A stretch of 64,000 nt of DNA from assembly GCF_001624705.1 (NCBI RefSeq), contig NZ_JSEO01000003.1:372001-436000 (forward strand). Direction: 5' to 3'. Under the pieces are notes generated by a model. That model ran no database searches. It saw only the letters and a program-made list of their open reading frames with translations, and was not told where the DNA came from. The stretch is from Marinomonas sp. SBI8L. GTDB taxonomy: Bacteria > Pseudomonadota > Gammaproteobacteria > Pseudomonadales > Marinomonadaceae. Every line of letters begins with the position of its first letter. Within the stretch, counting starts at the first letter, position 1. Below, one piece after another: positions 58,332 through 61,151 of the stretch. The position numbers and the translations under genes were made by a program.

Positions 58332-58721
58332 GTGATTAAAGGAAGCTGTCTTTGTGGCAATGTTACTTATGAAATTTCGGGCGAAGTAGGCGATATCGTT
58401 CACTGTCATTGTGTTACTTGTCGAAAGGCCCATGGGGCAGCGTTTTCAAGTGTTGCGTCAGTGCCATTAGCTAATTTTCGGTTATCTGGTGCGGGAGAAT
58501 TAAGTCAGTTTGAATCCTCCCCAGGTAAAGTCAGACATTTTTGTGCAAATTGTGGCACTCAGATTTATGCAAAAAGAGAGGGTGCACAGCATATTATTTT
58601 ACGACTTGGCTCACTCGATGATGATATCTCTAGTAAAGAGATTGGCCATATTTGGACATCACAAAAAGCGAATTGGTACGAAATTAATAGCCCTTTACCG
58701 GAGCATCTCGAATTTGATTAA
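58332..58721 (+). CDS. GFA-family zinc protein
   Basis: GFA/CENP-V family protein of 129 residues, GTG start after GGAGAG. Zinc ligands are in GSCLCGNVTYE, HCHCVTCRKAHGAAFS and FCANCGTQIYA. The C-terminal part (LGSLDDDISSKEIGHI) is also found as a decayed relic at 60034-60142, so a second copy once existed nearby. Confidence 0.88.
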   Translation: MIKGSCLCGNVTYEISGEVGDIVHCHCVTCRKAHGAAFSSVASVPLANFRLSGAGELSQFESSPGKVRHFCANCGTQIYAKREGAQHIILRLGSLDDDISSKEIGHIWTSQKANWYEINSPLPEHLEFD

Positions 58722-58784: not shown

Positions 58785-59384
58785 CTAGCTGTTTTCTTTC
58801 CATGATTTAACAGTAGAAATAGCTATGTTCACATAGCCTTCTGCTGCTGTCCCATCTTCTGCATTTCTATTAATTAAGCCAATAGCTAGAAAGCACCCGA
58901 CAATAAAATCACCTGCATCTTCTGGATTTATACATGATTTAACTTTACCTAAAGACTGCTCTCTTTTGATTAAATCTATAGTAGCACTCTTCACACCTTG
59001 GTAGTGCTCAGCTGGGAATTTATCAATATTAGGATTATGAATAGAAATATTTTCAGCAAGTGTATTTACAAATAAACAGCCATACTTTCTGCTGTCTAAG
59101 TTAACGGGAGCTATTGTTCTTATTAACATTTTTTCGAAAACATCAATGCTTTCAGCATTAGCGATTGGAGCAATAATGAAATCTTTAGCGTCGACTTGGT
59201 AAGACCTTAACGCTTCTTCAAAAAGCCCTTCTTTACCATCAAATTGAGTTCTAATAGCAAATCTACCAAGGCCAATTTGCTCCTCGATGTTTTTTATTCC
59301 GAAATTGAGATAACCATTTCTCCTGAATGCCTCTCGCGCTTTTAGGATAGCTTCTTCTCTTACGTAGTTTTTTTTTCTAGGCAT
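58785..59384 (-). CDS. TetR-family regulator
   Basis: Regulator of 199 residues from ATG 59384; TTG 59393 is an alternative start. The helix-turn-helix region is about 10-55 (AILKAREAFRRNGYLNFGIK; IEEQIGLGRFAIRTQFDGKE), which resembles the AcuR/YxaF-like branch. It is divergent from a DUF4345 membrane protein gene. The palindrome at 59480-59503 lies between them and is its probable operator. Confidence 0.9.
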   Translation of the reverse strand: MPRKKNYVREEAILKAREAFRRNGYLNFGIKNIEEQIGLGRFAIRTQFDGKEGLFEEALRSYQVDAKDFIIAPIANAESIDVFEKMLIRTIAPVNLDSRKYGCLFVNTLAENISIHNPNIDKFPAEHYQGVKSATIDLIKREQSLGKVKSCINPEDAGDFIVGCFLAIGLINRNAEDGTAAEGYVNIAISTVKSWKENS

Positions 59385-59479
59385 ATAAATCAATCATCAA
59401 ATCATTCTGAAGCATAGTATTTGTTAGCTTTTAAGTAGATGCAAGTGCCTTGCACTTATTTTGATATGGAGATAAGTTT

Positions 59480-59503
59480 ATATCACTACGAGTGTAGTGA
59501 TAT
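59480..59503. promoter_or_regulatory. TetR operator candidate
   Basis: ATATCACTAC-GAGT-GTAGTGATAT is a perfect 10-bp dyad with a 4-bp spacer. It lies 20 bp before the DUF4345 start and about 95 bp from the TetR gene. Confidence 0.65.
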
Positions 59504-59522
59504 GAACTTTAAAGGTATTATT

Positions 59523-59930
59523 ATGAAAAACAGTAAAGCTTTAGTTCTAATTTTATTTGTTGCTGGTGTGATGTTGAGCTTTTTTGGAGGTTTTGCCGCT
59601 TTCTTTCCAGAAGCATATACAGGTCGTCATGATATAAGCATTTTAGGTAATGTTAATCTGTACAACGAATTTAGAGGAACGGGTGGGCTAATGCTTGCGA
59701 GTGGTTTGCTCATTTTACTAGGTGCATTTATAAAAGAGCTAGCCTATACCGCTACGATTGTTGCAGCGGTAAATTTTTTACTTTTTGCACTTGCTAGAGT
59801 GTTTTCTATCTTTGTGGATGGGGTTCCAGTTGACGGTATTATAAGAGCAACAGCTGTTGAAATGTTAGTGGGCCTTATATGTACGTGGGCATTTTTTAAA
59901 TATCGAAATGTTATTAAGGCTAAGGAATGA
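59523..59930 (+). CDS. DUF4345-like membrane protein
   Basis: Membrane protein of 135 residues from ATG 59523 (AAAGGT upstream), with four helices. The pattern FPEAYTGRHDISILGNVNLY, FRGTGGLMLASGLLILLGAF and VDGIIRATAVEMLVGLI matches DUF4345. The longer frame from 59439 reads through the operator and is rejected. It is likely repressed by the divergent TetR. Function unknown. Confidence 0.83.
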   Translation: MKNSKALVLILFVAGVMLSFFGGFAAFFPEAYTGRHDISILGNVNLYNEFRGTGGLMLASGLLILLGAFIKELAYTATIVAAVNFLLFALARVFSIFVDGVPVDGIIRATAVEMLVGLICTWAFFKYRNVIKAKE

Positions 59931-60033: not shown

Positions 60034-60142
60034 TTGGGCTCACTCGATGATGATATTTGCAGTAAAAAACAACTGTCTTTGGACATCAAAAAAGCGAATT
60101 GGAAAGAGACTAATGATCCTCTGTAGGGATGTCTAGAGCATG
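60034..60142 (+). pseudogene. Relic of a GFA-family gene (3' end only)
   Basis: About 110 bp resemble the 3' part of the GFA gene at 58332-58721. The translation FLGSLDDDICSKKQLSLDIK then KKANWKETNDPL-stop parallels LGSLDDDISSKEIGHI and QKANWYEINSPL. It has lost its 5' part and has a premature stop, so it is non-functional. The stretch 60150-60320 beyond it is very AT-rich and shows no gene. Confidence 0.75.
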
Positions 60143-60322: not shown

Positions 60323-60351
60323 TTGACACTTATTGACTGTGTTGCTTACAT
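60323..60351 (+). promoter_or_regulatory. Sigma-70-type promoter candidate for the small peptide gene
   Basis: A perfect -35 TTGACA (60323-60328) is followed after 17 bp by TTACAT and overlapping TACATAAT, a weak -10 region. It lies about 55 bp upstream of the 47-codon gene, in AT-rich DNA. Confidence 0.45.
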
Positions 60352-60406
60352 AATATTTCCATTTAATTGGAAAACAATATAAAAAATATTATGAAGGAAT
60401 ATAGTT

Positions 60407-60550
60407 ATGAACAAAGTAAATGCTAGTCTTGCTAAAAAAGCCTTTTTCCAAACTGCTCAAAAAGGTGATAAGAAAACACAATTTAAAATGAAGCTAGAAA
60501 GTGATAAAAAAGCCTTTTGTGGCAAGCTGTGTTTACACACACCTAAGTAG
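60407..60550 (+). CDS. Small basic peptide with C-terminal CxxxC, candidate RiPP precursor
   Basis: A 47-residue open frame with an AAGGA ribosome site 8 bp before ATG. The peptide is strongly basic (12 Lys, only 3 acidic residues). It opens MNKVNASLAKKAFFQTAQ, has a Lys-rich middle and ends KKAFCGKLCLHTPK, with Cys 38 and Cys 42 in a CxxxC spacing and His 44. The motif KKAF occurs twice (10-13, 34-37). A -35 box lies upstream and a terminator-like hairpin follows directly, so it has its own expression unit. A GRDP-like gene comes next. Leader plus Cys-bearing core and a partner enzyme is how ribosomal-peptide clusters look, but a metal-binding or regulatory peptide is possible. I recognise no family. 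Confidence 0.6.
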   Translation: MNKVNASLAKKAFFQTAQKGDKKTQFKMKLESDKKAFCGKLCLHTPK

Positions 60551-60566
60551 CTTTTAGCATTGATTT

Positions 60567-60613
60567 AAGCGCCTTATTATTTTATAGGGAAATCAATAAG
60601 GTGCTTTCTTCTT
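60567..60613 (+). terminator. Hairpin between peptide gene and GRDP-like gene
   Basis: A 12-bp stem AAGCGCCTTATT/AATAAGGTGCTT (one G-T pair) is followed by TTCTTCTT. It would end most transcripts after the peptide gene and let a fraction continue, giving more peptide than downstream protein. Confidence 0.65.
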
Positions 60614-60665
60614 ATATTCATTATTCTTAATGAAATTGAAATATATTAAGTTGGCAGGTAATAAA

Positions 60666-61151
60666 ATGGAATTTCAAGAATTTGATATTAAAGACTTAAA
60701 AGATGATGTGGGTTTACCTCTTGCATTTCCTCATGTACCAAAATTAAAGAATTTAGAGGAGATCAAGGAATATATCTTCAATATGGATATGTCTATGATC
60801 TTTTTCAAGATGACAGACGAAGAGTGTGCCGGTGATTTGGGGCTTCTTTGGGATGAAGAAGATGCTGCATTTGCCATTAATCAATACCGTCAATATCTCT
60901 ATCTTATTCGAAAATACGATACCAACATTTCGCCCACTCTTGCTATAGATGCTGTTTGGCATAACCATATATTAGATACCAGAAAATATGTGCAAGACTG
61001 CCAAGCCATATTCGGCCATTATTTACATCACTTCCCTTATTTCGGTTCCCGGGATGAAGAAGACAGAAAACATTTAGAAATGGCTTTTGAAAATACTAAG
61101 ATGTTATTTAAAAAAGAATTTAACGTTGATATTGCTAAAGATGTTGAGTAA
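60666..61151 (+). CDS. Glycine-rich-domain-protein-like (GRDP-like) protein
   Basis: Soluble protein of 161 residues from ATG 60666, with AGG eight bases upstream; the frame opens at 60630 without a ribosome site. The conserved core is ISPTLAIDAVWHNHILDTRK (about 89-108), then YVQDC (108-112) and GHYLHHFPYFG (117-127). This D-x-x-W-H-x-H...Y-x-x-D-C...HH-x-P pattern matches the GRDP-like family (PF07173) as I recall it, first noted in plants. The His/Asp/Cys cluster suggests a metal site. No enzymatic activity is established to my knowledge. Position after the Cys-bearing small peptide gene suggests a joint role. Confidence 0.78.
   Translation: MEFQEFDIKDLKDDVGLPLAFPHVPKLKNLEEIKEYIFNMDMSMIFFKMTDEECAGDLGLLWDEEDAAFAINQYRQYLYLIRKYDTNISPTLAIDAVWHNHILDTRKYVQDCQAIFGHYLHHFPYFGSRDEEDRKHLEMAFENTKMLFKKEFNVDIAKDVE

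What the first reader, a model, noticed from the sequence alone, without database searches (positions are those of the whole stretch)
60407..61151. Unannotated Cys-bearing peptide gene paired with a GRDP-like protein: candidate new RiPP-type system
Seen: a 47-codon gene with a strong ribosome site encodes a Lys-rich peptide ending FCGKLCLHTPK. A hairpin terminator follows, then a 161-residue protein with D-x-x-W-H-x-H, Y-x-x-D-C and HH-x-P motifs. Known: RiPP precursors are short, have a leader and a C-terminal Cys-rich core, and are often separated by an attenuating terminator from their enzymes. GRDP-like proteins have no settled activity. Inference: the GRDP-like protein may bind a metal and modify or chaperone the CxxxC peptide. 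The AT-rich flanks hint at recent acquisition. A nitroreductase gene lies 1 kb away but is LysR-controlled and probably separate.
Basis: partly seen in the sequence, partly recalled or inferred. Interest (0 to 1): 0.85.

Follow-up and report, generated by a model that had tools for sequence, protein, structure and literature searches.

The report
Peptide gene paired with GRDP-like protein
A tiny, previously unnoticed bacterial gene makes a short cysteine-bearing peptide together with a partner protein of unknown function, and relatives of the partner often carry many copies of a similar motif in their own tails, which points to an undescribed way of making modified peptides.

Summary
The 47-aa peptide (60407-60550) differs from its Marinomonas MED121 copy by 10 synonymous, 0 non-synonymous bases. 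The pair recurs in six loci of four lineages: KAFCGKLC is invariant, much of the leader varies, and no other nearby gene of at least 80 aa is shared by all. The partner is a helical GRDP-like protein with invariant D95/H99/H101/Y108/D111/H122.

In many relatives this domain carries cores in cis, as tandem A-[YFW]-[C/S]-[G/A/S/T] units: 3 or more in 66 of 122 tails, shuffled mean 2.5. Of 24 without tail Cys or Ser array, 18 have a separate peptide gene. Cis genes of one family lie near CHASE sensor genes in 22 of 22 genomes tested; some trans genes lie near transporters or TonB receptors.

Best reading: a RiPP-type module with GRDP as metal-dependent maturase or carrier of Cys/Ser cores. Architecture is shown; modification, metal and product are inferred. 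No MNIO gene was found in three FCGKLC genomes, and no paper linking GRDP/DUF1399 to peptide maturation.

The parts
60323..60352 (+). promoter-like TTGACA - 18 nt - TACATA
   Evidence: read directly; TTGACA and TACATAAT conserved in MED121; the consensus scan did not list it and found no more promoter-like sites than shuffles
60356..60373 (.). palindrome TTTCCA-N6-TGGAAA, possible operator
   Evidence: both arms conserved in MED121; not seen by eye in the other four loci
60394..60399 (+). ribosome site AAGGAA
   Evidence: sequence
60407..60550 (+). 47-aa candidate precursor peptide gene
   Evidence: purifying selection; homologues beside GRDP genes in four lineages
60509..60532 (+). invariant core codons KAFCGKLC (residues 35-42)
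   Evidence: identical in all six loci
60567..60606 (+). hairpin between peptide and GRDP gene, possible attenuator
   Evidence: z -4.0; the gaps of the five other loci also fold into hairpins, without a shuffle control
60666..61151 (+). GRDP-like protein, 161 aa, candidate maturase or carrier
   Evidence: Pfam PF07173; 69-71% identical in Aestuariispira, Kiloniella and G1287; helical model, pLDDT 79
60948..61037 (+). conserved D95xxWHxHILDTxxYxxDCxxxFGxxxHHxP block
   Evidence: D95, H99, H101, Y108, D111, G117, H122, P124 in 106 of 106 domains of at least 95 bits

Best explanation
A two-gene RiPP-type module. The 47-aa peptide is a precursor: a basic leader of about 34 residues and the core AFCGKLC near its C-terminus. 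The GRDP-like protein is its cognate maturase, or at least its carrier: its invariant Asp/His/Tyr block is proposed to hold a metal ion and to act on the Cys (in relatives Cys or Ser) that follows a bulky residue in the motif A-[F/Y/W]-[C/S]-small. In many relatives domain and cores are one polypeptide, so the reaction would occur in cis on a tandem multi-core tail; in the window's clade the core sits on a separate gene and is reached in trans. The hairpin between the genes would let the precursor be made in excess of the protein. The product is probably exported and serves as a signal or metal-handling peptide. Shown: gene pair, selection, invariant core, cis and trans forms, invariant polar block, links to CHASE sensors, transporters and TonB receptors in relatives. 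Inferred: metal, modification, cleavage, export, role.
For: Conserved pair with invariant core, the only thing found shared by the four lineages. Synonymous-only divergence from MED121. Same domain with cores in cis: Variovorax AWCSLEA-type x3, Cupriavidus PAYCARE-type, G689 nine AYCAGPH-type units, 4 to 19 units counted in 65 proteins. 66 of 122 distinct domain proteins of at least 80 bits have 3 or more core-like units; composition-preserving shuffles of the tails give a mean of 2.5, maximum 6 in 200. The trans core AFCGK recurs in a cis array (L171). Of the 24 with neither tail Cys nor Ser array, 18 have a recognisable peptide gene beside them. Variable leader with conserved end in two further trans sets, GGGHCQGGG[GS]W and CxGxC. 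Invariant D/H/Y block. CHASE gene near GRDP in 22 of 22 genomes against 0.16 expected. TonB-dependent receptor near the pair in 6 of 6 trans loci scanned, TonB in 3, ABC ATPase in 1; a MatE-like protein and its 28%-identical homologue; MFS in Aestuariispira.
Against: No modification, metal or product was observed. No fold comparison could be run and no convincing solved homologue was found by sequence. The core types differ widely (AFCGKLC, GGGHCQGGGW, CSGxCQS, CxDHACHxPSxCACR), so one chemistry for all is unproven. A single tail Cys is weak evidence: 397 of 944 control ORFs have one in the last 40 aa, against 72 of 122 GRDP proteins. Short Cys-bearing frames also occur near GRDP genes by chance, so only those with conserved ends, and Stanieria's repeat frame, were counted. 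The 122 are dominated by one sampled family with close relatives. The CHASE link lies within that one family and may be one ancestral event; one of two GRDP genes of G852 has no CHASE gene on its contig. The TonB loci were picked by eye before the scan (6 of 8). No transporter or receptor was seen beside the window pair itself.
Confidence: 0.6

Rival explanations
1. GRDP is only a leader-like carrier or recognition domain; the chemistry is done by an enzyme encoded elsewhere, such as an MNIO.
For: MNIO systems use partner proteins, and Cys-tailed TIGR04222 proteins were proposed as MNIO substrates (PMC12452194, passages). 9 of 15 genomes tested do hold an MNIO gene, the window's among them.
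Against: No MNIO found in both Kiloniella, Aestuariispira, G941, G377 and G647 (6 of 15; completeness is not told for the first three, 90% for G647), and no MNIO match lies next to a GRDP gene in the 15. The invariant Asp/His/Tyr block looks catalytic.
Confidence: 0.2
2. The peptides are unmodified thiol metal chelators (chalkophore- or metallothionein-like) and GRDP is their metallochaperone or loader.
For: Cys-rich ends; TonB receptors and exporters near some trans loci, as in methanobactin-type logic (recalled).
Against: 26 of 122 domain proteins have Ser arrays and no Cys in the tail, which cannot chelate by thiol; the fixed A-aromatic-[C/S] context is not needed for chelation.
Confidence: 0.12
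3. The 47-aa frame is a regulatory leader peptide whose translation controls the hairpin and so the GRDP gene (attenuation).
For: Hairpin between the frames.
Against: Amino-acid-level purifying selection and an invariant C-terminal core; similar cores fused in frame to the GRDP domain in relatives.
Confidence: 0.05
4. A defence or toxin-antitoxin type module, the peptide being a toxin or effector.
For: A viperin-like gene follows a Cys-tailed GRDP gene in two of three other Marinomonas genomes read (family test on one of them); sporadic distribution.
Against: The viperin link was seen in one genus only and not in its third genome (G011); cis fusions to tandem cores and CHASE sensors fit signalling or natural products better.
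Confidence: 0.03

Closest known systems
PF07173 GRDP-like (DUF1399), plant glycine-rich domain proteins
   Same: The window protein passes the Pfam cut-off; shared C-terminal block; the name itself refers to Gly-rich tails
   Different: Only profile positions 97-143 match; the bacterial proteins here are short, with Cys/Ser core arrays or a separate peptide; no paper found ties the domain to peptide maturation (listings)
TIGR04222 proteins, proposed MNIO substrates (PMC12452194, passages seen)
   Same: Protein with an unstructured Cys-bearing C-terminal tail proposed as RiPP precursor
   Different: TIGR04222 are membrane proteins often beside MNIO genes; the window protein does not match TIGR04222 and has no MNIO beside it
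Methanobactin / MNIO systems (recalled, and PMC12452194 passages)
   Same: Short Cys precursor with partner protein; exporter or TonB receptor near some relatives
   Different: No MNIO (MbnB-type) gene beside the pair; different partner protein
BURP-domain peptide cyclases of plants (recalled; PMC12186524 and PMC11253845 seen as listing with abstract start only)
   Same: Works-like analogy: metal enzyme domain and core repeats, in cis or in trans
   Different: No BURP match; copper and cross-linking not tested for GRDP

Membership tests
RiPP (general) | short ribosomal precursor with variable leader and conserved core | tested here: met
   at sequence level: and 114, 115 for relatives; translation itself not observed
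RiPP (general) | cognate maturation protein encoded with the precursor | tested here: inconclusive
   GRDP is the only gene of at least 80 aa shared by all loci and is fused to cores in relatives; activity unknown
RiPP (general) | post-translational modification and release of the core | not testable with these tools
   needs mass spectrometry
MNIO-modified RiPPs | MNIO (PF05114) enzyme with the precursor | tested here: not met
   not found in G985, G986, G987 (three FCGKLC genomes); in the window genome and G036 on another contig
TIGR04222 | match to the NCBIfam model | tested here: not met
   no NCBIfam family for the window protein at E up to 1
PF07173 GRDP-like | score above the gathering cut-off | tested here: met
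   23.1 against 22.7 bits; of 10 relatives scanned, 3 pass, 6 match below the cut-off and 1 has no match
PF07173 GRDP-like | full-length domain match | tested here: not met
   positions 97-143 of 143
Methanobactin | MbnB/MbnC pair with MbnA | tested here: not met
   no MNIO match next to the pair; MbnC not searched
BURP cyclases | BURP domain | tested here: not met
   Pfam scan at E up to 1 gives PF07173 and a below-cut-off TOPRIM_C match, no BURP

The most novel reading that the evidence does not exclude
GRDP-like domains are a widespread, undescribed class of self-modifying peptide maturases: a metal enzyme carrying its own tandem cores (A-aromatic-[Cys/Ser]-small), with a split two-gene form as in this window, whose products are sensed by CHASE-domain receptors in one bacterial family and recovered through TonB receptors in another group.
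Probability: 0.4. Interest if true: 0.95.

Novelty: new variant of a known kind. Interest (0 to 1): 0.86.

Why it matters
It would give a function to a domain (GRDP/DUF1399) known mostly by name, add a RiPP-type class with a new maturase family, and make a prediction testable in one co-expression experiment. The cis arrays beside CHASE kinases suggest a peptide signal for a receptor domain whose bacterial ligands are mostly unknown (recalled).

Tried and rejected
Rejected or led nowhere: Rfam search of the locus, two matches far below their gathering scores. PHROGs, no family. E. coli genomes, no match. Plasmid tblastn with the peptide, two hits at E 5 and 9. Viral contigs for the coding pattern of KAFCGKLC, none. 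NCBIfam match of the peptide to S-ribosylhomocysteine lyase (13 against 208 bits) taken as chance. Peptide matches in G023, G045, G046 (E 0.01-0.08): not counted, as a scan of their loci found no short C-terminal CxxxC frame at the match. A single Cys in a tail was dropped as an argument after the control. A peptidylglycine-amidation-like reading of C-G-K / S-G-R was considered, but Ala, Ser or Thr often stand at the Gly position. Nitroreductase/LysR as part of the system: rejected. In one search I had labelled L215 and L216 'none' and L217 'cis Cys' because of a ribosome-site filter; relaxed reading found the peptide in all three, so those three tree labels are wrong. The CHASE count by a home-made profile (43 of 69 rows) was replaced by Pfam matches in 22 genomes chosen from the 62 with a GRDP match. 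MNIO was tested in 15 chosen genomes. The '354 of 361 Cys' figure is over proteins chosen for such pairs; without that choice it is 370 of 481. An alignment for a second structure job was made but the job was not sent.

Full report
WHAT IS THERE. The window lies in a 5.19 Mb genome (G000) of the same genus as G036, whose contig C9 has the length of the Marinomonas sp. MED121 contig NZ_CH672429.1. At 60407-60550 an ORF of 47 codons with AAGGAA 7 nt upstream encodes MNKVNASLAKKAFFQTAQKGDKKTQFKMKLESDKKAFCGKLCLHTPK. At 60666-61151 follows a 161-aa protein with DxxWHxH, YxxDC and HHxP. Between them a hairpin folds with z -4.0. TTGACA/TACATA and a palindrome TTTCCA-N6-TGGAAA upstream are conserved in MED121; the consensus scan found no promoter excess and no terminator-like site, so these are my readings, not tool calls.

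THE PEPTIDE IS A GENE. Window and MED121 peptides differ at 10 synonymous and 0 non-synonymous bases; GRDP at 50 and 10. The two K. laminariae peptides differ at 5 and 1, while the DNA behind their stop codon diverges strongly.

THE PAIR RECURS. A scan of genome contigs with the GRDP protein gave six loci: MED121 (95%), Aestuariispira insulae (70%), two Kiloniella laminariae (71-72%) and two cyanobacteria (44%). The first four have the homologous peptide upstream; a later profile search added G1287. The gaps between peptide and GRDP gene are 102 to 424 bases in the six loci. In the six-row alignment M1-N-K, A9, K11, K22, Q25-F-K, L30 and K35-A-F-C-G-K-L-C42 are invariant and the rest varies; the window peptide is 46-54% identical to those of other genera. 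All-against-all BLAST of the neighbourhoods (about 5 kb on either side) shows GRDP as the only gene of at least 80 aa shared by Marinomonas, Aestuariispira, Kiloniella and G1287. The gaps fold into hairpins in all six, but only the window's was held against shuffles. The module is rare and scattered: 2 of 49 genomes of the window's genus have the peptide, 2 of 61 in Kiloniella's order have this GRDP type, and of 244 sampled in the window's order only the window's genome matched closely, with 3 more distant ones. This fits horizontal transfer; it is an inference.

THE FAMILY CARRIES CORES IN CIS. Plasmid hits and genome searches gave GRDP-like proteins in 35 of 369 (E up to 1e-5), 28 of 398 (1e-10), 62 of 195 (1e-15, one family) and 19 of 337 genomes (1e-15); the samples overlap in part. 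Reading their C-termini was the surprise: Variovorax AAAWCSLEAGKPAAAWCSLEADKTGPAWCSLDAG, Cupriavidus EPAYCAREATAAEPAYCARM, G689 nine AYCAGPH-type units, and in G689's family (f193, unnamed; probably Burkholderiales, an inference from the named Variovorax and Cupriavidus hits) arrays AYCGAA, AWCTRT, AFCGAPEKQAN, and Ser arrays AYSGRA and AFSGAP. In 65 proteins with at least 4 units (4 to 19 each) the unit is A (0.90) - Y/F/W/H/M - C (0.54) or S (0.46) - mostly G/A/S/T; spacers are looser. Over all 122 tails, 370 of 481 Cys follow Y/F/W/H/M; 66 tails have 3 or more units against 2.5 (maximum 6) in 200 composition-preserving shuffles; the 50 low-scoring proteins have none with 3. One protein, L194, mixes Cys and Ser units. 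An alphaproteobacterium (G1185) has PAMCGGMLK repeats. The window's AFCGK occurs in a cis array of G852 (L171).

CIS OR TRANS. Of 122 distinct domain proteins of at least 80 bits, 72 have a Cys in the tail and 26 more a Ser array. A lone tail Cys is weak, as 397 of 944 control ORFs have one in the last 40 aa; two or more: 44 of 122 against 154 of 944. Of the 24 with neither, 18 have a recognisable peptide gene beside them: six FCGKLC, four GGGHCQGGG[GS]W (Halomonas; P. savastanoi and P. amygdali plasmids), seven CxGxC, and Stanieria's AAFCFLM/AGFCFLD frame. The six left are L023, L060, L162, L192 (a fragment), L208 and L224; L224 has an unconfirmed 26-aa frame downstream. Chance Cys-bearing short frames also turned up, so frames without a conserved end were not counted, Stanieria's repeat frame apart. 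L208 lacks an array and has Arg at the H99 and H122 positions, as expected of decay. Eight loci of the CxGxC group (the seven and L217) have the peptide; the longer form CxGxCxSGxC holds in five of the eight.

TREE. 106 domains of at least 95 bits, 133 columns; few columns, and the bootstrap had not settled. The FCGKLC rows form one group (99/88). The Ser-array label needs 5 changes, at least 4 forced by starred branches, so arrays have switched between Cys and Ser more than once. Three labels in that run were wrong (L215, L216, L217), and one viral row labelled Ser-array (L122) also has Cys in its tail.

WHAT THE DOMAIN LOOKS LIKE. AlphaFold2 from 11 sequences: pLDDT 79, pTM 0.78, seven helices, the D95-H101 and Y108-C112 blocks on two consecutive helices, HH in the following loop. 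D95, H99, H101, Y108, D111, G117, H122 and P124 are present in 106 of 106; in the low-scoring group H99 (44 of 45) and H122 (45 of 46) stay, H101 is Phe in 22 and His in 20 of 45. A profile search of PDB sequences gave only two chance-level matches (E 0.09 and 0.63); fold comparison was not available. I infer a metal site; it was not tested.

CONTEXT. In 22 f193 genomes (chosen from the 62 with a GRDP match) with 2-8 CHASE matches each, a CHASE domain lies 556-1493 bp from the nearest GRDP domain in all 22; chance expectation 0.16 genomes; the second GRDP gene of G852 has none on its contig. These genomes share ancestry, so 22 is not 22 independent events. Pfam shows CHASE-HisKA_3-HATPase kinases in 7 of 9 neighbours scanned, a CHASE-GGDEF-EAL protein in Cupriavidus, and a GGDEF-EAL protein without CHASE in one locus. 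The Halomonas cassette is peptide-GRDP-MatE-like (20.2 bits, under the cut-off of 24.9) beside an AHL synthase; the P. savastanoi protein in the same place has no Pfam family but is 28% identical to it. Of the eight CxGxC loci, six that looked promising were scanned: all six hold a TonB-dependent receptor barrel, three a TonB, one an ABC ATPase. One of them has the same peptide as a Piscirickettsia salmonis plasmid. Aestuariispira has an MFS gene next to GRDP. Nothing of this kind was seen beside the window pair.

NOT MNIO. Cys-tailed TIGR04222 proteins were proposed as MNIO substrates (PMC12452194; passages by term search; GRDP does not occur in its text). PF05114 was not found in Aestuariispira, both Kiloniella, G941, G377 and G647 (6 of 15 genomes searched); in the other nine it lies on another contig than GRDP or far off, about 17 kb at the nearest. 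So MNIO does not seem to be required for the FCGKLC pair.

LITERATURE. Searches for GRDP, DUF1399, PF07173, GRDP-like, 'glycine-rich domain-containing protein(-like)', alone or with RiPP or precursor peptide, for CHASE domain with precursor peptide, for tandem or autocatalytic RiPPs and for Massilia-type RiPPs gave no paper that links this domain to peptide maturation, judging by listings and abstract starts. The library lacks most subscription journals.

CONCLUSION. The finding stands and is larger than stated: a conserved two-gene module that looks like the split form of a widespread domain-plus-cores family. I put 0.6 on GRDP acting on the peptide as maturase or carrier in a RiPP-type pathway, 0.4 on the bold form (a self-modifying metal enzyme class with receptor-linked products). 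The reaction is unknown; that both Cys and Ser occur at the core position favours chemistry on the beta-thiol or beta-hydroxyl residue over plain thiol chelation.

Noticed in passing
window 60037-60114 against 58608-58688: A 78%-identical degraded copy of the 3' end of the GFA-like gene lies before the peptide; a TetR-like and a small membrane-protein gene (58785-59930; all three names recalled, from no call) sit between the two copies and have no match near the MED121 pair, which suggests an insertion with duplication.
   Followed up: partly
window 60356-60373: Palindrome TTTCCA-N6-TGGAAA at the presumed transcription start, conserved in MED121.
   Followed up: no
L008 2115-3083, L010 2083-3051: A viperin-family gene (NF038283, 331.5 bits for L008) directly follows a GRDP gene whose tail reads ARCSDHACH-PS-CACRVPGACK in two other Marinomonas genomes, not in a third, G011.
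   Followed up: partly
L122, L125, L126, L237: Viral contigs carry GRDP-like genes with long Gly/Ser/His/Cys tails.
   Followed up: no
L045-L057, L070-L087: A second, low-scoring GRDP group, many with GGCGGCGG-like tails and apparent membrane segments; relation to TIGR04222 not settled.
   Followed up: partly
L208 4892-5362: A GRDP gene without an array has Arg at two otherwise invariant His positions, as if decaying together with the loss of its cores.
   Followed up: no
L017 1071-2628: A LuxR regulator and an acyl-homoserine-lactone synthase lie beside the Halomonas peptide-GRDP-transporter cassette.
   Followed up: no
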